Origin: Arenibacter catalasegens
GTDB lineage: Bacteria; Bacteroidota; Bacteroidia; Flavobacteriales; Flavobacteriaceae
Assembly: GCF_002909235.1 (NCBI RefSeq)
Contig: NZ_PHQQ01000021.1
Coordinates: 44,949-108,948, forward strand
Direction: 5' to 3'
DNA: 64,000 bases
Shown here: positions 44,753 to 64,000 of the stretch, piece after piece
Position numbering within the stretch: position 1 is the stretch's first letter
Layout: each line of letters begins with the position of its first letter
Translations under genes and position numbers: made by a program
Notes under the pieces: generated by a model
The model's input: only the letters and a program-made list of their open reading frames with translations
Databases searched by the model: none
Told to the model about the DNA's origin: nothing

Positions 44753-44838
44753 ATCGCAAAATGGCATTTACAACGTTAAATAACTTTTTAGAGTATTTAA
44801 ATAACTGAATATCAATTACATAAACCTTTATTATTACG

Positions 44839-46383: not shown

Positions 46384-46392
46384 AATTTATTC

Positions 46393-47253: not shown

Positions 47254-47262
47254 TTAGATACA

Positions 47263-47787
47263 CTAATTGTTTATAGCAGGGGTATTTGGATTATACTCTT
47301 TGATCAAGCTTTCGGTAAGTTTTTCAAACTGATTGTTTTTTGCCATTTCGCGGACTTTAACAGGGTCAAAATCGCCATTAAAATAAAGGAAGGAACCGCT
47401 TTTAGTATTGTTGTTGAATATTAAAATTTCTTTTACCGAATTTTTACGTTCCCTTACAGAAATTACGGAACGTTTTAAATCATCATTTTTACGAAAAATC
47501 TCGATGAAGGAATTTCCGGTAATACCATTCATTTGTTTGTTCAGAAAATCTGCCTTTGCAGGGGTCGCCAAGGGAAACTGCATATACCTTAAATCTTTGG
47601 TATTGCCTATCAGGGCATTTATTTCCGGGGAAATATTACTTAACAGCGATATCATAAAATGGGGCACACGGATGGCGGTAACCTGGTTGTCGTTCTTATG
47701 GGCCTCGTAAAAGGTATCTATAGAATTGTAACTTCCACAGGAGACTAAAAGCATTATACTCAAAATAAATAGTGTTGTCTTGCCCAT
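47263..47787 (-). CDS. DUF4252-like lipoprotein
   Basis: 174 residues from the ATG at 47787, giving signal MGKTTLFILSIMLLVSC with lipobox Cys17. DUF4252-type features: a YEAHKNDNQVTAIRVPHFMISL start, LRYMQFPLATPAKADFLNKQ, and SFLYFNGDFDPVKVREMA. Function unknown; proteins of this kind are often encoded near ECF sigma factors, but none is here. The longer frame would overlap rluA-like gene and is not chosen. Confidence 0.8.
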   Translation of the reverse strand: MGKTTLFILSIMLLVSCGSYNSIDTFYEAHKNDNQVTAIRVPHFMISLLSNISPEINALIGNTKDLRYMQFPLATPAKADFLNKQMNGITGNSFIEIFRKNDDLKRSVISVRERKNSVKEILIFNNNTKSGSFLYFNGDFDPVKVREMAKNNQFEKLTESLIKEYNPNTPAINN

Positions 47788-47843
47788 AAAACTATGTTTT
47801 GCGTTGTAATTACGGCGATGCCTTTTGTTAAATGTAGTGAAAA

Positions 47844-48542
47844 TTACGTACATGCATTCCAAACACTATCCTCGGGTGGCGGGGCTATAAGTTGAAGTAT
47901 TTCTTTCTTTACAGGGTGTATAAAAGAAAGTTTTCTTGCGTGCAAGTGGATACTTCCATCTTTATTGCTTCGGTCCGAACCATATTTTAAATCACCTTTA
48001 ATAGCACATCCTATGGCTGCCAGTTGTGCCCTGATCTGATGGTGCCTACCCGTTTTTAGATCGATTTCCAATAAAAAATAACGATCTAAACTCTTGATGA
48101 CCTTATAGTCTAAAATGGCTTTTTTGCTTTCGGGGACTTCATTTTTATGACCGTAGGATTTATTTTGTTTTGTATTTCTCTTTAACCAATGGATTAAGGT
48201 ATCCGTTTCTTTTTCTGGCATTTTGTTGACCACGGCCCAATAGGTTTTTTGGGCATCCTTTTCCGCAAACAATTTGTTTAGTCTGGGCAAGGCCTTCGAA
48301 GTTTTGGCAAAGACTACTATACCTGTTGTTGGTCTATCTAACCGGTGTGCCACCCCCAAATAAACGTTACCCGGTTTGTTGTGTTTTGTTTTAATATATT
48401 GTTTTACAACCTCGCTTAGCGGAGTGTCCCCTGTTTTATCCCCTTGTACAATATCGCCTGCCCTTTTGTTGATGGCTATTAGGTGATTGTCTTCATACAA
48501 TACCTGAAGATTTTTAGGAGTAGAAATGATTTTTGTGGACAC
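47844..48542 (-). CDS. RluA-family pseudouridine synthase
   Basis: 232 residues. Catalytic motif GVAHRLDRPTTGIVVFAKT with Asp69, followed by KTYWAVV and the LKTGRHHQIRAQLAAIG block. No S4 domain, so it is the short RluC/RluD-like catalytic type; the modified RNA cannot be told. Lies 84 bases after panB on the same strand. Confidence 0.93.
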   Translation of the reverse strand: MSTKIISTPKNLQVLYEDNHLIAINKRAGDIVQGDKTGDTPLSEVVKQYIKTKHNKPGNVYLGVAHRLDRPTTGIVVFAKTSKALPRLNKLFAEKDAQKTYWAVVNKMPEKETDTLIHWLKRNTKQNKSYGHKNEVPESKKAILDYKVIKSLDRYFLLEIDLKTGRHHQIRAQLAAIGCAIKGDLKYGSDRSNKDGSIHLHARKLSFIHPVKKEILQLIAPPPEDSVWNACT

Positions 48543-48626
48543 TTAGGTAGAATTAATTTTCTAGTTCAAAAGCCAAAATTAATACATAACATGGCTTGCA
48601 TTTTAGAGTGTAATCTTAAGAATGGT

Positions 48627-49445
48627 TTAGTATTGCTCTTCGTCACTCGGGAAGTCCCTTGTTTTTACATCATCGACATATCTTGAAATGGCACTACCCA
48701 TTTCTTCATATAGGTTTAGATACCTCCTTAAGAACCTGGGATTAAATTCTTGGGTAATTCCCAGTAGGTCGTGAATCACCAAAACTTGTCCGTCAACACC
48801 ATTTCCCGCCCCAATGCCTATTATAGGAATTGAGACACTTTCTGCAACCTCCTTGGCCAACTTGGCAGGAATTTTTTCAAGGACTATACCAAAACAGCCC
48901 ATTTTCTCCAATAGTTTGGCATCTTCAATTAGTTTAACGGCTTCGTCTTCCTCTTTTGCCCTGACCGTATAAGTCCCGAATTTATAAATGGATTGTGGTG
49001 TTAGGCCCAAATGTCCCATGACCGGAATTCCAGCATTCAAAATTCTTTTGACCGATTCCTTGATTTCCTGGCCACCTTCAACCTTTACTGCATGGCCGCC
49101 ACTTTCCTTCATGATTCGGATGGCAGAACGCAACGCTTCTTTTGGATCACTTTGATAACTCCCAAAAGGTAAATCCACAACCACTAGGGCACGGCTTACC
49201 CCACGGATTACAGAGGAGGCATGGTAAATCATTTGGTCTAAAGTAATGGGCAGGGTGGTTTCGTGTCCGGCCATGACATTACTGGCAGAATCGCCTACTA
49301 ATATTACATCTACGTTGGCGGCGTCAACAATTTTGGCCATAGAATAATCATAAGCCGTTAACATGGATATTTTCTCACCGTTTTTTTTCATATCAACGAG
49401 AGATTTTACAGTAACTCTTTTGTATTCTTTTTTGGCAGTAGACAT
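48627..49445 (-). CDS. panB: 3-methyl-2-oxobutanoate hydroxymethyltransferase
   Basis: First step of pantothenate synthesis: transfers a hydroxymethyl group to 2-ketoisovalerate. 272 residues, full length. [34 protein letters not shown] (Mg-binding Asp), [26 protein letters not shown] and [10 protein letters not shown] are all typical. The intergenic region upstream (49446-49732) is AT-rich, with a possible TACTTTTA -7 box on the minus strand; no gene is visible. Confidence 0.97.
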
Positions 49446-49732
49446 TTATTTTATTTTTGGTAGGATAAAAGTAATGATTTGTTCCAAAAATTTAAGTTGT
49501 TTAAACTTTTTGTTTGAAATTGAGAATATTGGCTGTTGTACGCAGGGGAAGCCATTTTTGATTTGAATGATAAGGATAGGGCAGCCGGATATGGCAAAAT
49601 TCGGTTGCAAAATAGGATGTTTATAGGTGAAAATAAGGTTATGCTAGTTCATATTTAATCTGGGCACGGTGTGTTCCTATGGGTTTTGTTTTTTTTGATT
49701 ATTTTTAGTTGACTACTAAAAGCTCTATTGAC

Positions 49733-50191
49733 ATGTATAAAATTTGGTCCTTCTTTTCAATTTTTATGTTCACTTTTGGGATGCAAGCTCAGAATGGGGG
49801 AGAGGAGCAGGTGAGAAGTACTATTGCTTCGTTTTTTGAAGCGTTTCACCAACAGGATTCAATAGCTATAAAGGAAACGGTTTCCAAGGATATTGTAATG
49901 CAGACTATAGGAAGAAATGGAAATGGTTTAGAGGAAGTTAGGATCGAAAATTTTAGTCAATTTCTGAAATCGATTGTGTCCATTCCGGCCACCACAAAAT
50001 TTGAAGAAAGAATTAAATCCTATAATATCCAAATTGATGGCCCTATGGCGAACGCCTGGACTTACTATGAGTTTTGGGTGAACGATACCTTTAGTCATTG
50101 TGGCGTTAATTCCTTTCAACTCTTCAACCGAGAGGGTGTTTGGAAAATCATTTATTTGATCGATACCAGAAGAAAGGAAGGCTGTGATTAG
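49733..50191 (+). CDS. Secreted SnoaL/NTF2-like protein
   Basis: 152 residues from the ATG at 49733 (frame open 8 codons upstream from a TTG). Signal peptide MYKIWSFFSIFMFTFGMQAQ. The mature part reads as a DUF4440/SnoaL-like NTF2 fold: IASFFEAFHQQDSIAIKETVSKDIVM and NAWTYYEFWVNDTFSHCGVNSFQLFNREGVWKI. No catalytic residues can be assigned. Right next to the repeat-rich intergenic region. Confidence 0.8.
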   Translation: MYKIWSFFSIFMFTFGMQAQNGGEEQVRSTIASFFEAFHQQDSIAIKETVSKDIVMQTIGRNGNGLEEVRIENFSQFLKSIVSIPATTKFEERIKSYNIQIDGPMANAWTYYEFWVNDTFSHCGVNSFQLFNREGVWKIIYLIDTRRKEGCD

Positions 50192-50379
50192 GTTATAGGC
50201 TTTGGGTCAGGTAAATCTATTTTTACTCACTAAGTGAGATTTGATGGCTCCTACGCTTGCCAGTGCCTTTCGGGCGGGGTTGAAATGTTATCAGTAGTTT
50301 CCATCCGATGCCTTCTGGGCCTGCCTTTGTCGGCCTTTAGATTTGTATTATAAATATAATCTATGGTGATGTTGAAAAG

Positions 50380-50700
50380 AGGGGTCCGGGGGAGGACTTG
50401 AATAAGAATTCGGAATGAACGATAATAAAAAAGCTCCTTCCCTTGGTTAAGGGAAGGTGGATCCTTCGCTGGTAAGCGGAGGAGACAGAAGGGATTGCAA
50501 GCCCGAGCCTAGGGGGAAGATTGGAGTTCATAGGAATAAAACACACCCCTAACCCCCGCCAAAATGCGGGGCAGGCCTTCCCCAAGGGACCCCTCCCTAA
50601 CCCTCCCCCAAGGGGAGGGAACTAGTTAGTTGCTATTATTGTTTAATCTAAAAAGATTCCCCTCCTTGGGAGGGGGGTAGCCTGCCATTGTCGGCCGACA
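50380..50700. repeat. Composite intergenic repeat, type C (CCTTCCC / CCCCTAACC element)
   Basis: The 50192-50763 gap has no gene. It holds GC-richer repeat DNA: GCTCCTTCCCTTGGTTAAG near 50432, ACACACCCCTAACCCCCGC near 50542, GCGGGGCAGGCCTTCCCC, and two inverted CCTCCC/GGGAGG arms. Close relatives occur at 60.2, 60.5, 60.8, 61.5 and 61.8 kb. The 200 bases before it (50192-50380) are unremarkable apart from GCCTGCCTTTGTCGGCC. Confidence 0.75.
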
Positions 50701-50763
50701 GGTTTGCCCTGAGGTAATTGACTTGGCCAAGGTCCTATTTTTAGGAAATCTTTGAAAAAATAA

Positions 50764-51591
50764 TTAGCGATTTTCCTGGGAGGAAAGGAATTCAATCAAG
50801 GCTTCGGGTTGATCGGTTTGAATACCGTCCACGCCAAGCTTGAGTAGTTGTTGCCATTCGTGATGCCATTTCTTGGGGTCATCCTCATTGTCATCTACAA
50901 ATACCTTAACCTTATTTTTATGTAGTTGTTTCACAAAGGATTTTGAGATATGGCCTATATCGGAGGCCATAATCTTTGGTTCATAAGCACTAATGACCCT
51001 TTTAATATTTCTCTTTTCACCTGGATCTGGCATTATAAGGCATTCTGGACAATATGTTTTAATTTCCATTAATGTTTGGTGGTCCTTAGCAGAGATATAC
51101 CAAACTATGGCCTCTTGCATGCCATATTTTTTTATCATGGAGATCAAAGCCTGAGGGGCGGCTTCCTTTAGATCCAAGTAAATGCCAATCTTTCCCTTGC
51201 AAAGCAATAGGATTTCCTCAAAGGTTGGAATCTTGGTATTGCTCCACTTTTCATCTAATTTTATTCCAATATCCAGAGTGCGCAATTGGGACAAGGTGAA
51301 GTCGCTTACCTTTCCCGATGTTCCTATTACGTAGGCATCTATGGTAGCATTATGGACACTTACAAATTCACCATCCTTGGTGGTCCTTACATCAATTTCT
51401 ACGAAATCGCAACCCAAATCGATCGCTTTTTGATAGGCCGCCAGGGAATTTTCCGGAATCCCGTTATGTTCACCTCTATGGGCTATTACATAGGTATTGC
51501 CATTTTTTGGATTGGGCAGTACCTGTTGTGCATAGCCCCCGCTAAAGCTTAATAGAATAAAGAACAGGGCTATGGCGGCATATTTATGCAT
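50764..51591 (-). CDS. Exported glycerophosphodiester phosphodiesterase family protein
   Basis: 275 residues with a signal peptide (ALFFILLSFSGGYAQ). GDPD TIM-barrel: IAHRGEHNGIPENSL (His38, Arg39), FVEIDVRTTKDG (Glu65, Asp67), VSVHNATID (His80), and GIYLDLKEA, KVKVFVDDNEDD, GVDGIQTDQPEAL at the end. Catalytic and metal positions look retained. Hydrolyses glycerol-phosphodiesters; exported members may act on lipid head groups or glycerophosphate-decorated glycans. Last gene of the five-gene cluster, 45 bases after the propeller/toroid gene. Confidence 0.9.
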   Translation of the reverse strand: MHKYAAIALFFILLSFSGGYAQQVLPNPKNGNTYVIAHRGEHNGIPENSLAAYQKAIDLGCDFVEIDVRTTKDGEFVSVHNATIDAYVIGTSGKVSDFTLSQLRTLDIGIKLDEKWSNTKIPTFEEILLLCKGKIGIYLDLKEAAPQALISMIKKYGMQEAIVWYISAKDHQTLMEIKTYCPECLIMPDPGEKRNIKRVISAYEPKIMASDIGHISKSFVKQLHKNKVKVFVDDNEDDPKKWHHEWQQLLKLGVDGIQTDQPEALIEFLSSQENR

Positions 51592-51636
51592 TGGTTAGAT
51601 CATATAAGTAATTAAGTCCTGTATCTTCAACATAGT

Positions 51637-53763
51637 CTATGGTTTAAGTAGCTTGTGGTATGTAGCTAAGTAATAGGGCAGTATGTAAAAAGTGCCTTCG
51701 TGCTCCGCATATCCATCACCTTCGTTGTCGTGGAGAACAGTGGCATCACGGTCCAATCTTACGTGACCTCTTTCGTCTATTGGTAAGGCATAGGTATCAT
51801 TGCCCCAGCCCATATCTTTTGACTGGCCAGGTGTTGGGTCCAGCAAAATATCAAGGCGGTGTGTATTGTCCATATCATAGCCAATGAGATCTAAGGGAAT
51901 TCGTTGTAAAGTTTCCGTCATGTATTGGGTATCCAAACTACTCTTATAGTACCTGTTTATGGAAGCCTTTGCAAATAAGGGATTTTCAACAAATAACTCC
52001 TCGGGCTTAAAAAAGCCCTCATCCACTTTTTTGGTGAAAAAGCCTGTCATGGCACCGTAGAGTCCGTCCCAAAAGGCATTTTTCTGCTTGCTTATATGCA
52101 GCCAAGCATTTTCTAGGGCAATACGGTACATAATTTGTCTTTCAGGATGCTGTTCATAATTTATTAGGCCATAAAGACTCATTAATCCAAGGTTGTTATC
52201 CCATGGAACCGCATTTTCCGGTGGAAAAAATTCTTTGGCATGCATGGCGTAGATATCGTAATTTTCCTCTTCCCGCAGCTGTTCGGCCACTTCTTCATAT
52301 TTGGAGTCTCCGGTAACATGTGATGCAACATTTAAAAAGGAAAGCATCATCATGGCATTTAAACCGCGTTGGTCCCAGCCCCAAATGGAATTAAAATAAT
52401 CAGGATCAAAACTCCCCCAACGGGTTGGTTTTCCATCATAATCCACCAGTTTAAAACCGTGGCGAATAAGGTGGTCGGTAACATCGGCAACCACTTGTTT
52501 AACGGCATCTTTTTCTTCCTTGGTCTCGGCTACCAAATCATAGTAAATCCCATAATAAAAATAATGTCCGGCCAACTCATCCGAGCTGGTATCGCATTTC
52601 CATCTATATTTTCCGTCCTCACTGAGTGGGAAACGGGGAAAAATATCTTTCCAAAAGGGATCGTTTGCCTGATTTCGGCGATTGTACTCCTTACTGTATT
52701 GCTCATTTACAGGTTCGTGCCAATCTACAGGGATGATTACCCTTGCTGGAAATCCGGGCTCGTAAGTGATGTCTACCAGCCATTTTAGGGCGTAAAAACT
52801 TCTATTGGCCAGTTCCCTGGCCTCGGGGTCTTTGGTAAGTGCGTACCTAAATGCTTGTGCTGCCCCGTACATGGCCGTATACTGACCGTCATTGTCCGAA
52901 ATAGCCAATTCGCTGGTGTTGATATTGAACTGTTCGGAAAGATGGCTTTGACAAATAAAACCCATCCTGTTGTGTCTTTCCTCTACCTGATTTGTAAAAT
53001 GGGTGGCTTTTTCGGCATAGGTCATTTCCTTGGAAATAATTTGGGCAAGACCGTTTGTGGTCGCTATCCAAGCCGTTCCTTCCAAATCAACGGCAATATC
53101 ATTTACATGGTTATCCGGTAACCATCTGCGGTTGGATCGATAAAAGAATTTATCATCTTCAACCCTAAAGGCCCCATTCTCAGTACCAAACCAGACTTGT
53201 CCTTTTGGGCCCGAAGCTGCAGATGTGAAATGATTGTAGGGTACTCCTTCCTTACCTGTAAACAGTTTCCAGCTCCCCTTGTTTAAACGACCAACACCTT
53301 CCTTGGAACCGAACCACAATTGGTTATTGGAGTCTACCGTTAAAGCGGCAACCTCTTTTAAGGCCCAGCTGTAATTTTCGTCCGAGGGGAGTTCCAGTTT
53401 CCATTTATTTTTTCCGGTTTTTACATAAAGTCCGTTTTCGCATCCTACGTAGGTGGTATCATCATAAGTTGTCCAGCTCAAGACCTTACCGGAATTTTCA
53501 GGAAGACCTTTAAAACGAGGCGCGGGAATTGTTATTGCTGGCCTGTTATTAGAGGACCATTTCGAATTTTTCCATTCATATTGCCCGTTGGAGGTTGTTG
53601 CTATTGGCGTATTATTGGATATGGATATGTCGTGGATGTTTCCTTGGGGAAGTCCTTCGGTATTTCCATGAATAACAGCAATGTCCTGATGAAATTTGGT
53701 TTCCTGGGCATAAGAGCCAAGGGAAAAAATAATAAAAGTTATGAGTAATGAAATTGATTTCAT
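51637..53763 (-). CDS. Exported propeller plus alpha-toroid protein (paralog 3)
   Basis: 708 residues from the ATG at 53763, which begins a signal peptide (MKSISLLITFIIFSLGSYAQ); the frame extends back into the neighbour. Residues about 25-240 are two-component-type propeller repeats (NQLWFGSKEGVGRLN, GQVWFGTENGAFRV, GTAWIATTNGLAQI). From about 290 an all-helical domain with NDGQYTAMYGAAQAFRYAL, SSDELAGHYFYYGIYYDL, DYDGKPTRWGSFDPDY and WDGLYGAMTGFF, and the end motif EGTFYILPYYLATYHKLL, suggests an (alpha/alpha) toroid as in polysaccharide lyases and six-hairpin glycosidases. Shorter propeller and signal peptidase I rather than lipoprotein signal separate it from its two paralogs. Confidence 0.75.
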   Translation of the reverse strand: MKSISLLITFIIFSLGSYAQETKFHQDIAVIHGNTEGLPQGNIHDISISNNTPIATTSNGQYEWKNSKWSSNNRPAITIPAPRFKGLPENSGKVLSWTTYDDTTYVGCENGLYVKTGKNKWKLELPSDENYSWALKEVAALTVDSNNQLWFGSKEGVGRLNKGSWKLFTGKEGVPYNHFTSAASGPKGQVWFGTENGAFRVEDDKFFYRSNRRWLPDNHVNDIAVDLEGTAWIATTNGLAQIISKEMTYAEKATHFTNQVEERHNRMGFICQSHLSEQFNINTSELAISDNDGQYTAMYGAAQAFRYALTKDPEARELANRSFYALKWLVDITYEPGFPARVIIPVDWHEPVNEQYSKEYNRRNQANDPFWKDIFPRFPLSEDGKYRWKCDTSSDELAGHYFYYGIYYDLVAETKEEKDAVKQVVADVTDHLIRHGFKLVDYDGKPTRWGSFDPDYFNSIWGWDQRGLNAMMMLSFLNVASHVTGDSKYEEVAEQLREEENYDIYAMHAKEFFPPENAVPWDNNLGLMSLYGLINYEQHPERQIMYRIALENAWLHISKQKNAFWDGLYGAMTGFFTKKVDEGFFKPEELFVENPLFAKASINRYYKSSLDTQYMTETLQRIPLDLIGYDMDNTHRLDILLDPTPGQSKDMGWGNDTYALPIDERGHVRLDRDATVLHDNEGDGYAEHEGTFYILPYYLATYHKLLKP

Positions 53764-53773
53764 ATTGGTCTGC

Positions 53774-55168
53774 TTAAAGTTCGATGACAAAAATCTGCAT
53801 TGTCGATGTTTGCTCATTGTCTGAAACCATACGGTTATAGGCAATTTTACGCCCATCATGCGACCAAACTGGGTTTTTAGGAGAATTTTGGTTGGGCTTG
53901 GTTAAGACTATACTTTTTCCGGTGTCCATTTTTAAGCCTACCAGGGAATTCTGCCAAATATAGACCAAGCTATGTCCTTTGGGATGCCAACGCACTCCAC
54001 CTTGAACATCCGAATCATGAAAAGTGCGTTGTACGGGTTCCCCTCCCCAAGGAGAGATGGTAAATACCTGTTTAACGTTCTGGTCATCTTGGGCCAAATA
54101 GGCGAGCATGCTTCCTCCATAAGAAGAACGGACAATACCTTCACAGCCCGGATATTTATTATTGGATGTGAATGTTAGTCTGCGTTGTTGCGTTCCCATA
54201 GGGGGAGCGGGCATGGTAGTTTCTGTTCCTTCAAGCGGACCATCTCCTGGAATGGTAATATCTTCTGGAATATCCACGATATATACCTCATCTATCTGCT
54301 CCCCTTTTTTGTTGGTGGTTGTCCCAATAAAGGCCCTTGCCCTTTGGGTTGCACCATCCGATTTTAGGTAACCGTAATGTCCCACCCAACTATCTCCGGC
54401 CGCTTTGCTAATTTCATCCGAACCTGGCGATGGATCAGGAACTACTCTTACCACTAGGGCGCTGAACCACTCACCGGTAAAATTCTCACCGTCCTTGGAT
54501 TCTGGAACAATTACTTGATGATGCTTTTTGGATACCCCTATGGTTCGTAGATTATGTGTTACGCCCGTAGAATCCTCGAGTTTTTTCATAATGGCATCAT
54601 TATAGGTATAACCTATCCATTGCCCGTCACCGCTAAATTCATGTCGGTGCGTTCCTCCTCGAAGTGCTCCTACGGTAAACGGAAACGAGATATCCCTGGC
54701 ATCCATAAAAATTGGCTCTCCTGGTTTGTCATCTTGTATAATTACCCCGGATCTTCGCCATTGTTCGTAAGGTTGCTCGGGAGAACAGTTTAATAGGCCA
54801 TGTATAAAGACCACTTCATTATTGGAATGGCTATAACTTACGGCGCCAACACCTGGGCCAAAGGCCTGGTTTTGTTCCAATTGATATAAAACCACTTTTT
54901 TACCGGTTTTAAGATGTATCTTTTCTATTTTACCGTTGGCGCCAATGCCACCTTCAGTAGTTCTGGTATCATAGACCAACCATTCATCATCCGGAGAAAA
55001 ATTATCATTACTGTCCAGATCATGGTTGTAGGATAGATTATTGGTTATTTGTTTTTCCATTTTATAATTGTCTTGTCCACAAGCACTAAATAGTAATGGT
55101 GTTACGAATAATAGAAGAATTGGTCTATTTTCAAATTTAAATTTTAAATGCATTTTTGTCGTGTCCAT
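53774..55168 (-). CDS. DUF3748 (YidR-like) beta-propeller lipoprotein
   Basis: 464 residues. Lipobox-like LLFSACGQD near residue 30, then a TolB/PD40-type propeller: DNFSPDDEWLVYDTR, AVSYSHSNNEVVFIHG, EFSGDGQWIGYTYND, RWHPKGHSLVYIWQ, VWSHDGRKIAYNR. The overall order (VYDTR..., VVFIHGL..., RRSGVII, LRGGTHRHEFSGDG) matches the DUF3748 family that includes E. coli YidR, of unknown biochemical role. Ten bases upstream of the next gene in the cluster. A second ATG five codons in is possible. Confidence 0.8.
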   Translation of the reverse strand: MDTTKMHLKFKFENRPILLLFVTPLLFSACGQDNYKMEKQITNNLSYNHDLDSNDNFSPDDEWLVYDTRTTEGGIGANGKIEKIHLKTGKKVVLYQLEQNQAFGPGVGAVSYSHSNNEVVFIHGLLNCSPEQPYEQWRRSGVIIQDDKPGEPIFMDARDISFPFTVGALRGGTHRHEFSGDGQWIGYTYNDAIMKKLEDSTGVTHNLRTIGVSKKHHQVIVPESKDGENFTGEWFSALVVRVVPDPSPGSDEISKAAGDSWVGHYGYLKSDGATQRARAFIGTTTNKKGEQIDEVYIVDIPEDITIPGDGPLEGTETTMPAPPMGTQQRRLTFTSNNKYPGCEGIVRSSYGGSMLAYLAQDDQNVKQVFTISPWGGEPVQRTFHDSDVQGGVRWHPKGHSLVYIWQNSLVGLKMDTGKSIVLTKPNQNSPKNPVWSHDGRKIAYNRMVSDNEQTSTMQIFVIEL

Positions 55169-55207
55169 ACCACTTGCTTGGGTTGTTAATATATTAAATT
55201 CTATTTT

Positions 55208-57481
55208 TTAGTCCTGTTTTTGAGGTGCACTAATAACCCCTAAATACCTGCCCATCCAGTACGGTAATAACCAGGTATCTCCGGCACTGATCAGTTGTTT
55301 TCCATCACCGTCACGATCTAGATCAAAAATATTTCCATTATGACGGTACAAAGGTGTTTCGGTCATCGGTAACAGTTCCTTTGTAGTTTGTAACCTAAAA
55401 TTATCGGAAAGCAATGTAATGTCCTTCCGATGGGAATTCTGCATTTTCCAATTTCTTAAATCCATAGGATACGTTTTCAAAAACCAGATGGAATTGTCCA
55501 AATCAAATTCTTCGGCACCGGTAGCAGCATATATGAAATTCCACAGCGCATTTTTTTCAGGTCGCTCCACTTGCCAATGGTCCTGTATACTCTTCTTGTA
55601 ATCCTTTTGCAATTCTGGGGTGAAGGCGTAGGGATATAGTCCAAAATAGGCCAAGAAATACATTTCGTCATCGGAATGGTTCCATTCATGTGACAAGTTT
55701 TTACTAAGCTCATCATCATCGGATGGACCAATTTGGCTTATGGGATGCATCAGGTTGTTGAGATAACCATGTTCTTCCATTAATTGATAGGCACTGGTTT
55801 TATATTTTTCTTTCCCCGTAAATTTATAGGCTGTTTGCAGAAAAGCTATTATGTTCGATGAGTACAGCCTACGATCGCCAACATTGGAGGGAAAGCCATT
55901 TACATAGGATGGGTTCCATTTCCCCCAGAGGGTGGGTTCGCCGTCTACATCAATAATATAGAAGTCGTTATCTACAATATAGCCCATTAAATTGTCCAAG
56001 CATTCCAAGGCACGGTCTCTCCAATCCTGATCTTCCACTAATTCCAAGATGGCAGTAAGCGCAAAAATTTGGCCCACGGTCTGATCACTGCTTGCTGTTG
56101 ACCTCCAGGTCCAATTGGAATGGTCGTTGCCTGGGAGCCAAAGTTTGGCAGGACTACCCGAAAGCAGTTCCTTTTTTTGCCAACCCTCCTTTTTTTCATC
56201 CGTTACTTTATAGTCCCGTTCAAAACTTCTAGCAAACAGGCCCTTTATCGTTGTTATTTGGTGCAATCTTTCAAGGGCTTCAAATGACTCAAAGGCATTT
56301 TGTTTGGCTTCTTCCGAACCCGTTACTTTATACCGGTATAACTGACTTACCAGATACATGGCCGTCCAGAGGTTGTCACTAGGCTGATCTTTCATTACAG
56401 CGGAGGCGTACCCATTTGGTAGCCTACTTAAGCTACAGTTGAAGCCGTATCTGATATTTTTTTCACGGACTTGCTTTTCGTAGAACATGGCCTTGTCCTG
56501 GAGGGTCATTAGGCTAGATTCAATACTTCCCACCCCTTTATCGGTGAGGATCAAGATCGTATCCTCAGGACCTTTTGTAATACGTATTACTTCATTACCC
56601 GGCAACCAACGTTCCCCAGAATAGTACCCATAATTACCATCTTCCAGTAACTTAAAGGCTCCCCATGTTGTCCCAAACCAAAGAGATCCATTAATTTCCT
56701 CCATAGTGGTTATATTAGGCCAGGGCAGCTTGTCAACCAGTTTGTCCTCGCCTAAAAAAAAGTACCCTTTGGAGGTGCCAATCACTATTTTGTTGCCATT
56801 ATCGATCAAGGTAGCACAGTTGATTTCTGAACCCACATAGATATCTTTTAATGGCTTACCAGGAATAAATGCGGTTATTTTTTCTGGGGAAATCAATAAA
56901 AATCGCTTTTCGGCTTCTTGATAAATAATCTGAGAAATACCTTGATGGGCTGCCAATTCCAATTCTACCCCATCCTGGTTTAGATAGGAGAGTCGTTTTC
57001 CATTATAGACCAAGAAATGAAAATCGTCACCACCTGCCAGGAGCTTGGCATTCTCCAGACCATGTGCTATCTGAAGCTTTCCGGCCCATGCGTTGCTAAA
57101 TACATAGGAATCGTCCAAATACACTATGTGTTCCCTGTATTTAGTGAAGGCTGCAATATTCTTAGGCGTCATGGGACCGTAGGAAATATCGGGAGTAAGT
57201 GTTCCGGAATAAAACATTTGTCCGTTTTCAGGTACCAAAAGGCCTTTGTTGGAAAGAATTTGAATATTTCCATTGCGGTTGGATATTACATCCTTTAACG
57301 CATAGGCCTTTTGATTTTCGGACAGATTATATTTAACGGCATATTCCTGAACATATGGCGTGTCCAAGTAAATGGGTAGACCATTTGAATTGGAATTTGT
57401 AGCAATGGCAATTTCGCTGTTCTTACCACAACTCCAAATACATAGGACAAGTATGCCGAGGATACCGTATTTCACGTGCAA
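55208..57481 (-). CDS. Propeller plus alpha-toroid lipoprotein (paralog 2, altered motif)
   Basis: 757 residues, lipobox VLCIWSC (Cys18). Seven-bladed-like propeller to about 330 (SLWFGTTWGAFKLLEDGNY), then the toroid-like domain: NLWTAMYLVSQLYRYKV (about 370), DVDGEPTLWGKWNPSYVNG, SSNIIAFLQTAYKFTGKEKY, NHSDDEMYFLAYFGLY, NSHRKDITLL, GDTWLLPYWMGRYLGVIS. Where paralogs 1 and 3 have SSDE..GH this one has SSDQTVGQ (about 463), so if Glu and His are catalytic it is inactive. 48 bases after paralog 1. Confidence 0.75.
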   Translation of the reverse strand: MHVKYGILGILVLCIWSCGKNSEIAIATNSNSNGLPIYLDTPYVQEYAVKYNLSENQKAYALKDVISNRNGNIQILSNKGLLVPENGQMFYSGTLTPDISYGPMTPKNIAAFTKYREHIVYLDDSYVFSNAWAGKLQIAHGLENAKLLAGGDDFHFLVYNGKRLSYLNQDGVELELAAHQGISQIIYQEAEKRFLLISPEKITAFIPGKPLKDIYVGSEINCATLIDNGNKIVIGTSKGYFFLGEDKLVDKLPWPNITTMEEINGSLWFGTTWGAFKLLEDGNYGYYSGERWLPGNEVIRITKGPEDTILILTDKGVGSIESSLMTLQDKAMFYEKQVREKNIRYGFNCSLSRLPNGYASAVMKDQPSDNLWTAMYLVSQLYRYKVTGSEEAKQNAFESFEALERLHQITTIKGLFARSFERDYKVTDEKKEGWQKKELLSGSPAKLWLPGNDHSNWTWRSTASSDQTVGQIFALTAILELVEDQDWRDRALECLDNLMGYIVDNDFYIIDVDGEPTLWGKWNPSYVNGFPSNVGDRRLYSSNIIAFLQTAYKFTGKEKYKTSAYQLMEEHGYLNNLMHPISQIGPSDDDELSKNLSHEWNHSDDEMYFLAYFGLYPYAFTPELQKDYKKSIQDHWQVERPEKNALWNFIYAATGAEEFDLDNSIWFLKTYPMDLRNWKMQNSHRKDITLLSDNFRLQTTKELLPMTETPLYRHNGNIFDLDRDGDGKQLISAGDTWLLPYWMGRYLGVISAPQKQD

Positions 57482-57529
57482 ATATTGTTCAGTATTAAAT
57501 TAATTATTAAAACAGTTTAGCGCTCGTTA

Positions 57530-59776
57530 TTACTTAGAGGGCATAGGTTCACTAATAACCCCTAAATATCTTCCCATCCAATATGGCAATAGCCAGATAT
57601 CGCCAGCAGAAAATTCTTCAGAACCATCTTTGGCGTATTCTCTGTCCAATCTAAACATATTGGCGTTGTGTCTTTGTACCGGTCTTTCGTCCGGGGGTAA
57701 CACTTCACTAAGGGTCTGTTCCCTAAAATTGGGTTCCAAGAAGGTGACATCTTTTCTATGGCTGTTCATAATGTTCCAGGATACCATATCCATGGGATGT
57801 TCCCTAAGGTACCAGGCGGCCTCTTCCAAGTCGAATTCCTGTGTTCCGGTGAGGGCGGTTATAATATTCCAAGCGCCTTCTTTTTCTGGTCTTTCAATTT
57901 CCCAGTGATCAATGATAGCGTCTTTAAATTTTGTTTTTAGGGTGTCGTTAAAGGCATATTTATAAAGGCCCCAGTATCCTACAAAGTACATTTCATCATC
58001 GGAATGGTTCCAAGATTCGGATAACATCTTACTCCAATCATCGGAATCATCCGGCGCTTTGGCCACATCTTTCATGGGCCACATTAGGTTATCTAAATAA
58101 CCGTGATTATCCATTAGATCAAAGGCTTTTTCCTTGTATTTTTCCTTGCCTGTAAAATGATAGGCCGTTTGCAACATTGCTATAATATTGGAGGCATTAA
58201 TTTTTCTATCACCTACCATTTTTGGACGTTCATTTACGTATTCAGGATTCCATCGGCCCCACGTGGTGGGTTTGCCATCAAAATCTACCATATACAGATC
58301 GTTTCTTACAATATGGCTCATTAGAGTGTCTATAAGTACAATGGCGCGATCTTTAAGATCGTTGTCCATGAGTTCGGCCATAGCGCCATAGGCAAAAATA
58401 TGCCCAATGGCTTCATCGCTACTAGTGGTAGATTTCCAATCCCATTCAGGATCATTGGCAGGTTGCCATCTTTCAGGATCATGCAAGCGCTCTTTATAAC
58501 CACTTCTTTCAAAGGATCTGGAAGGAAAGCCTGGTACATTATTAATGCTGAACAACCTTTCCATAGCACCCATAGCCTCCCTACAGTTCTGTAGTGCATC
58601 TTCGGATTTGGTCACCTCATAACGAAAAACTTCTCCAGCTAGGTACATGGTAGTCCAAAGTCCGTCGTTGTCGGAATCGGAAAGTCGCCCTGAATCAAAA
58701 TTTCCATCTTCCATGCCTACCAAAGTCGCATTGAACCCAAGTCGGATATGTCTATTGCGTACCTGTTTTTCATAGTACTGGGCCTTGTCGAACAGGGTCA
58801 TTTCCCTATATACTATTTGTCCAAGTCCGGCCTCGGTCAATACAAGGATAGAACCATCGGTGCCTTTGGATATATGTTTTACCTTATTGCTTGGCAGCCA
58901 GCGTTTGCCATAATAATAATTGAATTTACCATCTTTCTTGAGCATAAATGCTCCTTTGGTGGATCCAAACCAGAGGTGGCCATCAATTTCTTCAACATAG
59001 GTGATTTCTGTCCACGGCAATTTGATTTTCTTTTCTCCAATTTGCTTTCCTGTTGTGGCATCTACTTCCAAATATCCATCCAAAGTGGTAAGTATCAACT
59101 TGTTTTGCAATAGGGCAAAGGAGGTGAAATTACCGTTTTGGAAAACCGTTTTCAAGCTTTGATCTTTTGGGTTGAAGGAAGCAATGGATTTGTCTCCCAA
59201 TATCCAGAAGGTATTGTTTTTAGGGTTGAATTTAATTGCGATCACCTTGTCCTTGTCAAGGGCTCCCATCCAACTCTTCTTGTTTTTGGAAACATATTGA
59301 AGTTTTTGGCCTTCACTGATCAAAAATTCGAAATCGCTGCCTGCCGCAATTATATTGGCCTTCGGTAATTCGTGTTTCAGGTAAAGACTACCTGCCCAAG
59401 CGTTACTGAGTACCGCTTTATCATCTAGATACACAAACTGATCTTTATATATGGTCATTGCCGAAATATTCTTATCGGTTAACGGGCGGTAGGTCTTATC
59501 CTGAATAAGGACTCCGGGATATAGGAACTGTCCGTCGTGGGTGCGCAATAAGCCTTCCGATGAAGCCACTTGGATAACTTCATTACGGTCCATAAAGGCC
59601 TGTGACAAGATAAGATTTTCCTCTTGCTTGTTGAATTTTATGCTATAATCCTGCAGGTAAGGTACATCCTTATAAACAGGTAGCGATGCTGTATTTGTTT
59701 CACTTTTAGGTGATTCTGAACAAGATATGGTGACCAAGAGTACGGCCCATATTAAATTGCGAAAGCTTTTTCTCAT
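57530..59776 (-). CDS. Propeller plus alpha-toroid lipoprotein (paralog 1)
   Basis: 748 residues, lipobox LLVTISC (Cys19). First gene of the cluster. N-terminal propeller to about 330 with GHLWFGSTKGAFMLKKDGK and GSILVLTEAGLGQIV, as in hybrid two-component sensor propellers but with no kinase. Toroid-like domain: GLWTTMYLAGEVFRYEV (about 370), SRSFERSGY, TTSSDEAIGHIFAYGAM (about 452), DFDGKPTTWGRWNPEYVN, NHSDDEMYFVGYWGLY, NSHRKDVTFL, GDIWLLPYWMGRYLGVIS. Close to paralog 2 throughout. An exported lyase or glycosidase is inferred from the fold pattern; the family is not one I can name. Confidence 0.75.
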   Translation of the reverse strand: MRKSFRNLIWAVLLVTISCSESPKSETNTASLPVYKDVPYLQDYSIKFNKQEENLILSQAFMDRNEVIQVASSEGLLRTHDGQFLYPGVLIQDKTYRPLTDKNISAMTIYKDQFVYLDDKAVLSNAWAGSLYLKHELPKANIIAAGSDFEFLISEGQKLQYVSKNKKSWMGALDKDKVIAIKFNPKNNTFWILGDKSIASFNPKDQSLKTVFQNGNFTSFALLQNKLILTTLDGYLEVDATTGKQIGEKKIKLPWTEITYVEEIDGHLWFGSTKGAFMLKKDGKFNYYYGKRWLPSNKVKHISKGTDGSILVLTEAGLGQIVYREMTLFDKAQYYEKQVRNRHIRLGFNATLVGMEDGNFDSGRLSDSDNDGLWTTMYLAGEVFRYEVTKSEDALQNCREAMGAMERLFSINNVPGFPSRSFERSGYKERLHDPERWQPANDPEWDWKSTTSSDEAIGHIFAYGAMAELMDNDLKDRAIVLIDTLMSHIVRNDLYMVDFDGKPTTWGRWNPEYVNERPKMVGDRKINASNIIAMLQTAYHFTGKEKYKEKAFDLMDNHGYLDNLMWPMKDVAKAPDDSDDWSKMLSESWNHSDDEMYFVGYWGLYKYAFNDTLKTKFKDAIIDHWEIERPEKEGAWNIITALTGTQEFDLEEAAWYLREHPMDMVSWNIMNSHRKDVTFLEPNFREQTLSEVLPPDERPVQRHNANMFRLDREYAKDGSEEFSAGDIWLLPYWMGRYLGVISEPMPSK

Positions 59777-60179
59777 GTAATTAATTATTATGGTTGCATT
59801 AAATGCGTGATGTGCAATGACTAGTATTAATTGGTATGCAATAAATAAGGTACAACAGCCTTCTACAAATAAACCCTATTTGCGAGTAGGGAACTTCCTA
59901 TATTTTACATGATTTACATCATATATTATCTTAATTCTTAATTTCTACCTCATTTTTTAAATAAAGTGTTAGAATAATTGAAATTTGGATGTTTCTGACT
60001 ATTGAAATTGGCAAGAAATTGATTATTGATGAAGTAGGTGTTCGGGAAATGAAAATCTTTTGGAAGCTAGAAGAGGTTAATTTGATAATGTGTCCATTTG
60101 GAAATGGGTGAATGTAAAAATGGGCATAAAGCATTGCTAATTGGGTATTGTTCAAAAGGTACTTTAAGTTAAAACTTTC

Positions 60180-60325
60180 GGCTCCTTCCCTTGAAGGACC
60201 CCACCCTAGCCCCCGCCAAAGGGCGGGGCAGGCTCTCCCCAAGGGGAGGGAATTTGTTAGGATGTGTTAATATATTTTTAAGATTTATTCCCCCTCCTCG
60301 GGAGGGGGTTAGGGGGAGGACTTTT
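60180..60325. repeat. Type C intergenic repeat, short copy
   Basis: GCTCCTTCCCTTGAAGG, CCTAGCCCCCGCC, GGGCGGGGCAGGCTCTCCCC and an inverted GGGAGGGGGTTAGGGGGAGG arm. Closely matches the element at 50.4-50.7 kb on the other side of the cluster. 59777-60179 is AT-rich and holds the presumed cluster promoter but no clear consensus box. Confidence 0.75.
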
Positions 60326-60451
60326 GGTCACTTCGACAAAGTCCCTTTTTGGACTCCCGATAGTTACCTTGAACATTAAACTTTGAACATTGGACCTAGA
60401 ATATGAAATTTTAACTGACCACTGTTTATTAAAAACTGTTCACTGTAAGAA

Positions 60452-60690
60452 GCAGATTGCCGCGCTGCGCTCGCAATGACGGAACAGGGAAAGCTCCTCC
60501 CTTGTGACGAAGGGAGGTGTCTTCGCATCAGGCGAAGAGGGAGGGTTTTGAAAGCCCAAGTCTTGGGTAAGTGCCAATACATAGGGTTGAGGTACAATGA
60601 TTCGGGATTTCTAACTCCCCTTTCTTTCCCCGCCCAAATGCGGGGTAATTCATTCCCCTCTTCGTTACAAGAGGGGAGCCGTTAGCTGTT
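60452..60690. repeat. Type A half-element followed by a type C element
   Basis: GCAGATTGCCGCGCTGCGC then TCGCAATGACGG (60452-60482), followed by GCTCCTCCCTTGTGACGAAGG, a GGCGAAGAGGGAGGG arm and CCCCGCCCAAATGCGGGG to about 60690. Confidence 0.7.
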
Positions 60691-60768
60691 GAACCCAACA
60701 AGAATTCTCACCTAATAGGTGCGTGATGCGAATGTCTTCATATATACAGGTTCACAATGATGTAACAA

Positions 60769-61164
60769 AAGGAGCTCCTTCCCTTGGTTAAGCCTGTCCC
60801 GCGTTTTCGGCGGGAGGACCAGGTGGATGCCCGCTTTTAAAGCGGGAAGACGAAAGGGATTGAAAACGTAGGTCTTTGGAATGGGTTAAAGGATAGTGTA
60901 ATGGATGAAACACACCCCTAGCCTCTCGCTAAAAATCGGGACAGGCTCTCTCAAGAGGGGAATTGGTTACGTTCTGATAAGTTCCGTCATTGCGAGGAGT
61001 GATAACGACGAAGCAATCTCTAGATAGGAACATGCAGATTGCCGCGCTGCGCCAGCCTGGCGGCTTGGCAGGCTCGCAATGACGGTTTTAGACCTTTCGT
61101 CAGTTCGAGTGCTTCTCGATACAATTTTATTGCGTTTCACTCTATAAAATCACTCGAAGTGACG
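60769..61164. repeat. Composite C-A-B repeat, copy 1 (about 396 bp)
   Basis: Type C (GGAGCTCCTTCCCTTGG ... CTCAAGAGGGGAATTGG), then type A palindrome bounded by CCGTCATTGCGAG and CTCGCAATGACGG, then type B bounded by CGTCAGTTCGAGTG and CACTCGAAGTGACG. Nearly the same sequence is found again at 61815-62211; differences are concentrated in the first 200 bases. Confidence 0.92.
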
Positions 61165-61250
61165 GGCATTCGACCTTCGCCCTTGGATCTATAATATTGA
61201 TTATTGCTAATTGATTACTGTTTACGGTTTACTGTAACAAACAGATTGCC

Positions 61251-61387
61251 GCGCTGCGCTCGCAATGACGGGTTTAGTACCACCGTCAGTTCGAGTGAAA
61301 TGGCGATAGCCATTTTGTATCGAGAACAGAGTGCTTCTCAAATCAATTTTGTTACGTTTCACTCTATAAAATCACTCGAAGTGACGG
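61251..61387. repeat. Type A half-element and type B palindrome
   Basis: CAGATTGCCGCGCTGCGC/TCGCAATGACGG (61251-61272) and a type B unit (61283-61387) from CCGTCAGTTCGAGTG to CACTCGAAGTGACGG with a longer middle than in the composite copies. Confidence 0.75.
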
Positions 61388-61507
61388 GGGCTGTCAACTG
61401 ACCACTGTTTACTGCAAACTGCCCACCAGCTACTTCGATTTCGACTACGCTCAATCTCCGCGAGGACCTTGAACATTGGACCTTGAACATTAAATTTTGA
61501 ACTGTCA

Positions 61508-61720
61508 AAAACCCACCCCTAACCTCCCGCTAAAAGGCGGGACAGGCACTCCCAAGAGGGGAATTGGTTACGTTTTGATAAGTTCCGTCATTGCGAGGAG
61601 TGATAGCGACGAAGCAATCTCTTCATAGGAACAAGCAGATTGCTACGCTTCGTACCCCTTCCGTCTTCTCCTATGTCGAAGCCACCATCCCCTGCCTAGG
61701 GGAAGGAGTTTTTTTTCGTT
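61508..61720. repeat. Diverged C-A element with an inverted C arm
   Basis: ACCCCTAACCTCCCGC, GGCGGGACAGGCACTCCC, CGTCATTGCGAGGAGTGAT, GAAGCAATCTC (to 61640), then CCCCTTCCGTCTTCTCC ... GGGGAAGGAG in the opposite orientation to the other type C elements. Confidence 0.7.
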
Positions 61721-61814
61721 GTTCCAAAAACATAGAATTTTGAATATTTTTTTTATTGCTAATTGTTCACTGTAAGTAGCAAATTGCTTCGCTTCTCTAA
61801 CAATGACGTCACAC

Positions 61815-62211
61815 AAGGAGCTCCTTCCCTTGGTTAAGCCTGTCCCGCGTTTTCGGCGGGAGGACCAGGTGGCTTCCCGCTTTTTCAAGTGGGAAGACGG
61901 AAGGGATTGAAAACGTAGGTCTTTGGAATGGGATAATGGATAATGTAATGGGAGAAACACACCCCTAACCTCCCGCTAAAAAGCGGGACAGGCTCTTCCA
62001 AGAGGGGAATTGGTTACGTTCTGATAAGTTCCGTCATTGCGAGGAGTGATAACGACGAAGCAATCTCTAGATAGGAACATGCAGATTGCCGCGCTGCGCC
62101 AGCCTGGCGGCTTGGCAGGCTCGCAATGACGGTTTTAGATCTTTCGTCAGTTCGAGTGCTTCTCGATACAATTTTATTTCGTTTCACTCTATAAAATCAC
62201 TCGAAGTGACG
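61815..62211. repeat. Composite C-A-B repeat, copy 2 (about 397 bp)
   Basis: Second copy of the 60769-61164 element in the same orientation, 651 bp apart between ends. The A and B parts differ by only a few bases. No open frame or transposase is inside. Between the repeats in 59777-62293 are short AT-rich word-like tandem tracts (for example CCTTGAACATTGGA units near 61470), but no gene. Confidence 0.92.
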
Positions 62212-62293
62212 ACTTTCAACTTTCAAACATTGGACATTGAACTAGTGTCTATTGCCTAATGCCTAATGGCTTTTGGCTGAAGAACACTGTTCA

Positions 62294-63718
62294 CTAACAA
62301 TCACTAAGGTATACCCCTACGGCGAGTCCGCCTTCGGAAGTTTCCTTGTATTTGGTGCTCATATCCTTAGCGGTTTCCCACATAGTGTTTACCACCTTGT
62401 CCAACGGAACTTTTGCATTGGCGGGGTCGGAATCCAATGCCAATTCTGCAGCATTGATGGCTTTTATGGCACCCATGCAATTGCGTTCTATACAAGGTAT
62501 TTGTACCAATCCACCTATGGGGTCACAGGTAAGGCCCAAGTGATGCTCCATGGCAATTTCGGCAGCCATAAGTACTTGCTCCGGAGTACCGCCCATCAGT
62601 TCTGTCAGGGCTGCAGCCGCCATGGCAGAAGAAACGCCTATTTCGGCCTGACAACCACCCATGGCCGCAGAAATAGTAGCGCCCTTTTTAAAAATGCTGC
62701 CTATTTCTCCCGCTACCAGGAGGAACTGCTTTATGTGCTCAAAAGTAGCCTCGTGGTTTTCAATAACCATATAGTACATAAGGACTGCGGGGATTACCCC
62801 GGCACTGCCATTGGTAGGAGCGGTGACCACTCTGCCCAAAGAGGCGTTCACCTCATTGACACTTAAGGCAAAACAGCTCACCCATTTGAGGATGGCCCTA
62901 AATTTAACTTCAGTATTTCTAATGGTAAGCAGCCATTCCTCTGGTGTGGAATAGGGGAGGTCCCCTTTTAATTTTATGTGGGTATCGTAGGCCCTTCGTC
63001 GTACATTTAGTCCGCCTGGAAGGTTTCCTTCTGTATGGCAGCCAATGTACATGCATTCCAGCATGGTATCCCAAATGTGGTGTAGTCCTTTATCTATTTC
63101 AGCATCCGATCGCAGGGAACGTTCATTTACCAACACCAATTGGGAAATGGATTTATTTTCTTTTTTGCAGGCCGCCAATAGGTCTACTCCTTTCTCTATG
63201 GGATAGGGGAAGGCTTTGAAAACTTCCAGTTTCTTTTTGGACCTTTTTAGTTCTTCCTTAACGACAAAGCCACCACCAATGGAATAATAGGTTTCCTTTA
63301 TTATTTTGCTGTTGGATAGGGTAGCCGTAAAAGTAATGCCATTGGCATGAAAAGGTAGAAATTGCCTTTGGAATAAAATATCCAATTTGGGGTCAAAGGA
63401 AATTTCTAGCGTATTGTTCAAAAGCAGCTTTTTACTATCCTGAATGCTTTTGATGATACCGTCAATATTTTTAATGGGAATGGTGACAGGGTCAGCCCCG
63501 GTGAGTCCCAGCATGATGGCCAGATCGGTGGCATGCCCCTTGCCGGTCAAGGCGAGGGAACCATATACTTCAATTTGGATATGGGTAACGGAACGGAACA
63601 CCTTTTTTTCCAGAAGTTCACCAATAAAACGTTCTGCGGCACGCCACGGTCCCAAGGTATGTGAGCTTGATGGCCCAACACCGATTTTAAGCATATCGAA
63701 AACACTAATGCACTCCAT
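62294..63718 (-). CDS. sdaA: L-serine ammonia-lyase, iron-sulfur type
   Basis: Deaminates L-serine to pyruvate and ammonia using a [4Fe-4S] cluster. 474 residues, single-chain type with fused beta and alpha domains. [48 protein letters not shown], and cluster-ligand cysteines Cys356 (GGCQAEIG), Cys398 (LTCDPIGG) and Cys409 (QIPCIERN). glyA in this window makes its substrate, but the genes are 40 kb apart. The tail 63719-64000 has no gene; it holds only AT-rich DNA and a GGTTTAAAGTTCAAGGTTCG tract. Confidence 0.96.
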
Positions 63719-64000
63719 GGATCAATGAGGTTAATTTTATATGGTAAATATAGGATTATCCATTGGGAATTGTGGTGGGGATTTAGTGGAGTTGGTAGGG
63801 AACTTGGTATCTGATTGTTATTAAGGAGTTTGCAAGGAAGAAGGGTTCGAGGTTTAAAGTTCAAGGTTCGAATAATGTCCATGCCTATATAGCATTGACC
63901 GCTTTTAGTTGAATGTTAATATACATTTATTGATTCTTTTTTCCTTAAACATCTCTTTTTATTTTCAAATTCTACCGGGTTCATTTTTCCTATTGAACTG

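What the first reader, a model, noticed from the sequence alone, without database searches (positions are those of the whole stretch)
50764..59776. Five-gene exported cluster built on three propeller/toroid paralogs
Seen: three adjacent minus-strand genes encode proteins with a signal or lipobox, an N-terminal propeller like those of hybrid two-component sensors, and a C-terminal helical domain sharing the motifs (L/Y)W/YT.MY, SSD(E/Q), D.DG.PT.WG and a closing LLPYWMGRYLG-type end. A DUF3748 propeller lipoprotein and an exported GDPD complete the run, with 10-48 base gaps. Known: sensor propellers bind ligands, often glycan fragments, and (alpha/alpha) toroids are used by polysaccharide lyases and glycosidases. 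Inference: an uncharacterised carbohydrate-processing or sensing set without SusC/SusD.
Basis: partly seen in the sequence, partly recalled or inferred. Interest (0 to 1): 0.78.

Follow-up and report, generated by a model that had tools for sequence, protein, structure and literature searches.

The report
Propeller-ring enzymes for acidic glycans
A bacterium close to Arenibacter carries five adjacent genes for predicted exported proteins; three are relatives that join a predicted propeller to a predicted helical domain not named in the protein-family libraries searched, and together they likely break down an acidic sugar chain.

Summary
Five co-directional genes (50764-59776, minus strand, gaps of 10-48 bases) encode paralogs P1, P2 and P3, a DUF3748 protein and a GDPD. 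P1-P2 share 46% identity, P1-P3 29% over 541 columns (E 3e-57). A confident P1 model (pLDDT 89.9) shows a propeller (about 40-326), then helices (328-738) in the order expected of an (alpha/alpha)6 ring. The helical domain has no accepted Pfam match and no significant PDB sequence match, yet three Asp, Arg420 and two Trp are invariant in 84 aligned sequences. Its fold could not be checked by structure comparison: propellers filled the lists.

Context decides the reading. In 397 family genomes, all 14 with DUF3748 are among the 17 with the helical family. In relatives these genes often lie with GH92, SusC/SusD, a GH67N/GH20b-type protein, transporters and 2-keto-3-deoxy-acid-type aldolases. A published yidR (DUF3748) deletion in E. 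coli grows poorly on gluconate and galacturonate. Most likely these are enzymes of an undescribed family in an acidic-glycan catabolic system, here lying apart from its SusC/SusD core. Catalysis and substrate are inferred; some loci show no sugar genes. 'Sensing' is not supported.

The parts
57530..59776 (-). P1: propeller plus helical domain, 748 aa, lipoprotein-like start (Cys19)
58799..59659 (-). P1 propeller domain, about residues 40-326
   Evidence: AlphaFold2 model; fold matches
57530..58795 (-). P1 helical domain, residues 328-748, predicted (alpha/alpha)6 ring
   Evidence: helix order; no accepted Pfam match, no significant PDB sequence match
55208..57481 (-). P2: paralog of P1, 757 aa, TTG start, lipoprotein-like start (Cys18)
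55208..56503 (-). P2 helical domain
   Evidence: alignment
53774..55168 (-). DUF3748 (YidR-like) propeller protein, lipoprotein-like start (Cys30)
   Evidence: Pfam; model; fold matches; enterobacterial relatives
51637..53763 (-). P3: third paralog, 708 aa from Met33 of the ORF 51637-53859, signal-peptide-like start
51637..53019 (-). P3 helical domain
   Evidence: alignment
50764..51591 (-). glycerophosphodiester phosphodiesterase-family protein (GDPD), signal-peptide-like start
   Evidence: Pfam
50659..50675 (-). terminator-like stem (7 pairs, 6 G-C) just after the GDPD gene
   Evidence: pattern scan; consensus match only, such sites are not more frequent here than in shuffles

Best explanation
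This is a five-gene cluster whose three proteins with a predicted propeller and a predicted helical ring are likely an undescribed family of exported glycan-cleaving enzymes that would work with DUF3748 and a GDPD to break down an acidic sugar chain. Shown: the genes, the paralogy, the P1 and DUF3748 models, the residues invariant in 84 aligned sequences, the co-occurrence with DUF3748, and the catabolic genes beside many relatives. Inferred: the helical domain is an (alpha/alpha)6 ring whose pocket lies at the N-terminal ends of the inner helices; Asp454 and Asp593, at the beginnings of two such helices, act as general acid and base, with Asp498 and Arg420 binding the sugar (hydrolysis preferred to elimination); the propeller holds the substrate; the paralogs share the work on different linkages; DUF3748 acts on the sugar-acid product; GDPD removes a phosphodiester; the freed sugar acid is imported and split by 2-keto-3-deoxy-acid aldolases encoded elsewhere. 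In Arenibacter the enzymes lie apart from the SusC/SusD-linked core that several relatives keep together.
For: Unnamed helical domain: no accepted Pfam match in 19 members, nothing significant in the PDB by sequence, no NCBIfam match for P1 or P2. Invariance: R420, W447, S452, D454, D498, W506 and D593 are identical in 55 of 55 propeller-bearing and 29 of 29 helical-only sequences, P3 included (84 sequences chosen by me from the listings, not all relatives); D454 lies at the start of helix 453-469 and D593 just before helix 594-606. Co-occurrence: all 14 DUF3748 genomes are among the 17 helical-family genomes of 397 (hypergeometric 3e-23 without correction for kinship; 10 of 10 genera against 12 of 237). 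DUF3748 is in 20 of 26 named P1 loci and is the next gene on the same strand after P1 (or after P1-P2) in 15 of 26. Of 13 P1-type stretches from family genomes: DUF3748 in 11, GH67N/GH20b-type protein in 10, SusC and/or SusD in 8, GH92 in 7, DHDPS or HpcH aldolase in 7. Of 30 helical-family stretches from family and class genomes, 14 hold a DHDPS gene against about 1.0 expected from own-genome density and 10 a GDPD against about 0.8 (my arithmetic). The own-genome helical-only gene (L035) adjoins a GH67N/GH20b-type protein, two DHDPS genes and an oxidoreductase. The DHDPS beside the helical-only gene of G503 (L157) scores 320 bits to a PDB entry named dihydrodipicolinate synthase, 154 to E. 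coli YagE, named 2-keto-3-deoxy-galactonate aldolase, and 91 to N-acetylneuraminate lyase. The E. coli yidR deletion has a growth defect on gluconate and galacturonate (PMC5293155, passages read).
Against: No activity or substrate is known to me for any member. The ring fold was not confirmed by structure comparison, because the propeller filled the lists, and the helical domain alone was never modelled. Profile comparison found no link to GH88, AGE or GH92 proteins, though the two GH88 controls also failed to find each other. Several loci show no sugar-degradation genes among what was scanned or matched: L018 and L021, L023, L124, L149 and L150. In the window itself no SusC-sized ORF exists (longest 866 aa) and ten long ORFs scanned are housekeeping or regulatory. 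Of 13 named Arenibacter loci, GDPD is in 5 and P2 in 2. Three of the 17 helical-family genomes lack DUF3748 (G374, G427, G540); in G580 the two lie on different contigs and in G636 about 30 kb apart, and G636 has a GH92-DUF3748-GH67N/GH20b-SusC/SusD locus without a P1 (L154). Exo-enzymes vary between loci (GH92, GH33, none), so the substrate cannot be fixed. The plasmid collection, which holds E. coli records with DUF3748, has no helical-domain match, so DUF3748 can do without it.
Confidence: 0.5

Rival explanations
1. P1-P3 are surface or periplasmic glycan-binding proteins without catalysis: propeller and helical domain both hold ligands for neighbouring hydrolases such as GH92.
For: Lipoprotein-like starts of P1 and P2 and SusC/SusD-type loci of several relatives; propellers of the sensor type commonly bind ligands (family knowledge); the P1 propeller is closest in fold to lyase, sensor and RACK1-type propellers.
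Against: Three Asp, an Arg and two Trp are invariant across propeller-bearing and helical-only sequences that share about 22% identity, more than a mere binding surface usually keeps.
Confidence: 0.2
2. P1-P3 are polysaccharide lyases (beta-elimination) with a ring fold; unsaturated sugar acids feed the aldolases.
For: Ring-fold lyases are known from Bacteroidota (PL40 passages, PMC12915356); loci of relatives hold aldolase-family genes for 2-keto-3-deoxy acids; the own genome has a GH88-type gene (51 bits) about 15 kb from the helical-only gene.
Against: [quoted passage not shown] the invariant set found holds three Asp and no Asn or His at 84 of 84 (H343 is at 81 of 84).
Confidence: 0.15
3. 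The propeller proteins are sensors or regulators that detect glycan fragments, as the propellers of hybrid two-component systems do.
For: Reg_prop repeats in P3; propeller matches to BT4663/BT4673; NCBI names some relatives 'ligand-binding sensor domain-containing protein'.
Against: No kinase or response-regulator domain in P1-P3; up to four scored copies in a genome (at most four scored); tied to catabolic genes rather than to a regulator.
Confidence: 0.08
4. The enzymes act on a cell's own envelope glycan (remodelling) rather than on food glycans; the GDPD points to a phosphodiester-bearing envelope polymer.
For: The Arenibacter cluster has no SusC-sized gene anywhere in the window; GDPD directly follows a helical-family gene in seven fetched stretches (L110, L113, L119, L126, L151, L153, L163).
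Against: Aldolases, symporters and SusC/SusD beside relatives point to uptake and catabolism.
Confidence: 0.07

Closest known systems
Propellers of hybrid two-component sensors (BT4663, BT4673; Reg_prop)
   Same: Sensor-type propeller at the N-terminus, exported; among the top Foldseek neighbours of P1.
   Different: No kinase domain; a helical domain follows; one propeller in the P1 model.
Ring-fold polysaccharide lyases (PL12, PL15, PL17, PL39, PL40)
   Same: (alpha/alpha) ring of about 400 residues, here predicted; acidic-glycan context (PMC12915356, passages read).
   Different: Their ring is followed by an antiparallel beta-sheet domain; here a propeller precedes the helical domain and no beta-sheet domain follows. 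No sequence match.
GH88/GH105 unsaturated glucuronyl hydrolases (fold and Asp pair recalled)
   Same: (alpha/alpha)6 fold with catalytic Asp at inner helix ends (recalled).
   Different: No PF07470 match in 19 members; profile comparison negative but insensitive.
DUF3748 / E. coli YidR
   Same: 35-39% identity over 83-92% of the length to enterobacterial DUF3748 proteins, one named YidR; Pfam above the cut-off.
   Different: In an operon with the helical family here; in the E. coli record seen it lies near the galactonate genes dgoR and dgoD.
PL22 oligogalacturonate lyase (3pe7, 3c5m; family number recalled)

Membership tests
DUF3748 (PF12566) | Pfam score over the cut-off | tested here: met
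   118.7 bits against 27
GDPD (PF03009) | Pfam score over the cut-off | tested here: met
   109.4 bits against 23.6
Hybrid two-component sensor | Sensor-type propeller | tested here: met
   Reg_prop over its cut-off in P3 only; fold match for P1
Hybrid two-component sensor | Histidine kinase and receiver domains | tested here: not met
   no such Pfam or NCBIfam match in P1-P3 at E up to 1
GH88/GH105 | Pfam PF07470 match | tested here: not met
   none in 19 helical domains at E up to 1
AGE / GlcNAc 2-epimerase | Pfam PF07221 match | tested here: not met
   none in 19 helical domains at E up to 1
Ring-fold polysaccharide lyase (PL12/15/17/39/40) | antiparallel beta-sheet domain after the ring | tested here: not met
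   the P1 model ends with helix 724-738 and one short strand
(alpha/alpha)6 ring fold in general | structural match to a solved ring | tested here: inconclusive
   lists filled by propellers; helix order agrees
PL22 oligogalacturonate lyase (DUF3748) | same propeller fold | tested here: inconclusive
PL22 oligogalacturonate lyase (DUF3748) | conserved metal-binding and catalytic residues | not tested
   no residue-level superposition was available
Polysaccharide utilisation locus | SusC/SusD pair in the locus | tested here: not met
   no ORF of SusC size in the window (longest 866 aa; that one is a Clp ATPase); SusC and/or SusD in 8 of 13 P1-type stretches of relatives
Glycoside hydrolase (any) | hydrolysis of a glycosidic bond | not testable with these tools
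   needs an enzyme assay

The most novel reading that the evidence does not exclude
Propeller-plus-ring proteins are a new class of glycan-cleaving enzymes of Bacteroidota, often present as adjacent paralogs, and with DUF3748 as near-constant partner in their family they form a system for an unidentified acidic, possibly phosphodiester-bearing glycan; the same system gives the YidR/DUF3748 family a biochemical role, on sugar acids.
Probability: 0.35. Interest if true: 0.75.

Novelty: new variant of a known kind. Interest (0 to 1): 0.58.

Why it matters
If right, a domain family of about 400 residues, so far without an accepted Pfam or significant PDB sequence match here, is tied to a conserved partner and to a recurring catabolic locus, so that its activity can be screened on a short list of acidic glycans. 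It would also link DUF3748 (E. coli YidR), which in the ten papers listed of the 47 that name yidR appears partly as a vaccine antigen or adherence gene (search listing only), to sugar-acid breakdown.

Tried and rejected
Sensor reading: dropped, no signalling domain. Profile searches of the helical domain against the PDB gave only chance matches. Weak Pfam matches of single members (best DUF2750, E 0.0021, and Baculo_VP39, E 0.013) were taken as chance. Profile comparison with own-genome GH88 and AGE proteins and with GH92: negative; three of the four ORFs picked for GH88/AGE were wrong ones, corrected, where the GH88 control pair also failed, so the test is weak. Plasmid collection: no helical-domain match. 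Sialic acid as the substrate: suggested by one GH33 between P1 and DUF3748 (L108 of G480) and sialidase-like BNR proteins in L028, L125, L147, L160 and L163 (L125 scanned, the others by match to it); not adopted, as most loci lack them and the one DHDPS tested scores higher to YagE than to N-acetylneuraminate lyase. Galacturonidase naming of the GH67N/GH20b-type proteins rests on their N-terminal 150 or so residues, far below the cut-off (5 of 6 tested), so it is not used as a substrate claim. Promoter and terminator scan: within about 1.5 sd of shuffles. No Rfam match in 44000-64000. Literature, all in the held library only: DUF3748 occurs in one paper; no paper holds all of 'two component regulator propeller', 'glycoside hydrolase', 'periplasmic' and 'toroid'; searches listed no paper on this cluster by title. 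Co-occurrence of the GH67N/GH20b-type protein in the 397 genomes was asked for but did not complete.

Limits of the counts. The class and family searches scored only three and four candidates per genome, so helical-family tallies are lower bounds. The 37 stretches from family and class genomes overlap with the 26 named loci (same contigs by length: G422/L012, G475/L014, G503/L007), several come from one genome, and many are close kin; the counts are not independent. 'P1-type' means a phmmer score to P1 above 1100 bits, not a tree. Gene labels come from single-sequence phmmer matches (counted from 60 bits). Expected values use the own genome's gene density only.
Full report
What is there. Five genes run on the minus strand from 59776 to 50764 with gaps of 48, 39, 10 and 45 bases (P3 start). 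P1 (748 aa), P2 (757 aa) and P3 (708 aa) are paralogs: P1-P2 46% over 763 columns, P1-P3 28.7% over 541 (E 3.4e-57), P2-P3 27.8% over 586. Between P2 and P3 lies a DUF3748 protein, and after P3 a GDPD. P1, P2 and DUF3748 have lipoprotein-like starts and P3 and GDPD signal-peptide-like starts, judged by eye. A terminator-like stem follows the GDPD gene, but such stems are not more common here than in shuffles.

Distribution. 2954 of 7998 scored database proteins match P1 at E up to 1e-3, some of them perhaps by propeller alone; the 120 listed cover nearly the whole protein. Matches of E 0 over nearly the whole model were seen in 3 of 295 genomes of the class, G000 included; 40 of 295 matched at 1e-10, the other 37 through the propeller region only. 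Helical-domain matches were seen in 17 of 397 genomes of the family. DUF3748 is in 14 of the same 397 and each of these is among the 17: 3e-23 by hypergeometric, without correction for kinship, and 10 of 10 genera against 12 of 237. In G580 and G636 the two are not neighbours. Among the 26 named P1 loci, 20 hold DUF3748. Among contigs of at least 20 kb in the two listings of 120 homologs, 16 of 59 P1 contigs share their exact length with a DUF3748 contig, against 0.01 on average for shifted lengths, a proxy for the same contig. The tree groups P2 of Arenibacter with two Cytophagales proteins that lie near P1, one with a GH92 gene in between (97/99 support), so that pair may be old; the second copies of Chitinophagaceae and Prolixibacteraceae fall elsewhere. 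One database protein, P0109, carries a P1-like helical domain and a whole P2-like protein in one frame.

Neighbourhoods. In two Kriegella and two Maribacter the P1 locus reads GH92, P1, P3, then on the other strand MFS, DUF3748, SIS, ROK and a GH67N/GH20b-type protein of about 790 residues. In a Cytophagales MAG it reads GH67N/GH20b-type, P2-like, GH92, P1, DUF3748, a second GH67N/GH20b-type, then a sodium symporter and two aldolase-family genes. Of 13 P1-type stretches from family genomes, 11 hold DUF3748, 10 the GH67N/GH20b-type protein, 8 SusC and/or SusD, 7 GH92 and 7 a DHDPS or HpcH aldolase. One has a GH33 sialidase between P1 and DUF3748. Genes like own-genome L033 lie, in many of the stretches, with DHDPS, symporter, oxidoreductase, an FG-GAP protein and often a GDPD directly behind them, in one case overlapping by 4 bases. 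Over 30 helical-family stretches, 14 hold DHDPS (about 1.0 expected) and 10 a GDPD (about 0.8 expected). DUF3748 without a helical-family neighbour was also seen next to DHDPS (L158), next to a symporter (L155), and in a GH92/GH67N-type/SusC/SusD locus (L154). The own-genome helical-only gene lies with a GH67N/GH20b-type protein, an FGE-like protein, two DHDPS genes and an oxidoreductase. The same set in G503 has a DHDPS nearest to a PDB entry named dihydrodipicolinate synthase and next to YagE.

Against. Some loci show no sugar-degradation genes among what was scanned or matched: Agaribacillus L018 and Chitinophagaceae L021, L023, and L124, L149 and L150. In Arenibacter the cluster stands alone; ten other long ORFs of the window are housekeeping or regulatory or unnamed. 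Of 13 named Arenibacter loci, 5 have the GDPD, 2 have P2 and 10 have P3. Exo-enzymes vary, so the glycan is not fixed.

Reading. The family is best seen as likely exported enzymes of an acidic-glycan catabolic system. Hydrolysis by an Asp pair is my first choice over elimination, because the ring lyases described in print have a beta-sheet domain, with the catalytic His in PL40 (PMC12915356, passages read), and this family does not. The cluster in the window would be a part of that system that has come to lie apart from its SusC/SusD-linked core. The sensing idea is not supported.

Noticed in passing
window 60133-62213: The 2.5 kb between P1 and the next gene is a patchwork of repeats, with copies up to 300 nt and 95% alike.
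   Followed up: partly
P0109 (protein): A 1109-residue database protein carries a P1-like helical domain followed by a complete P2-like propeller-helical protein in one frame.
   Followed up: no
L158:8093-10529 and L155:7530-10454: DUF3748 genes with no helical-family gene in the stretch lie next to a DHDPS aldolase and to a sodium symporter, so DUF3748 may be tied to sugar acids on its own.
   Followed up: no
L012, L013, L014, L015, L019, L025, L026, L035 and ten of the L107-L123 stretches: A family of GH67N/GH20b-type proteins of about 780 residues, matched by Pfam and NCBIfam only at the N-terminus, accompanies the helical family; the one member compared with the PDB had no match.
   Followed up: partly
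L110:12306-15421: A GDPD gene overlaps the end of a helical-family gene by 4 bases; GDPD directly follows such genes in six other stretches (L113, L119, L126, L151, L153, L163).
   Followed up: partly
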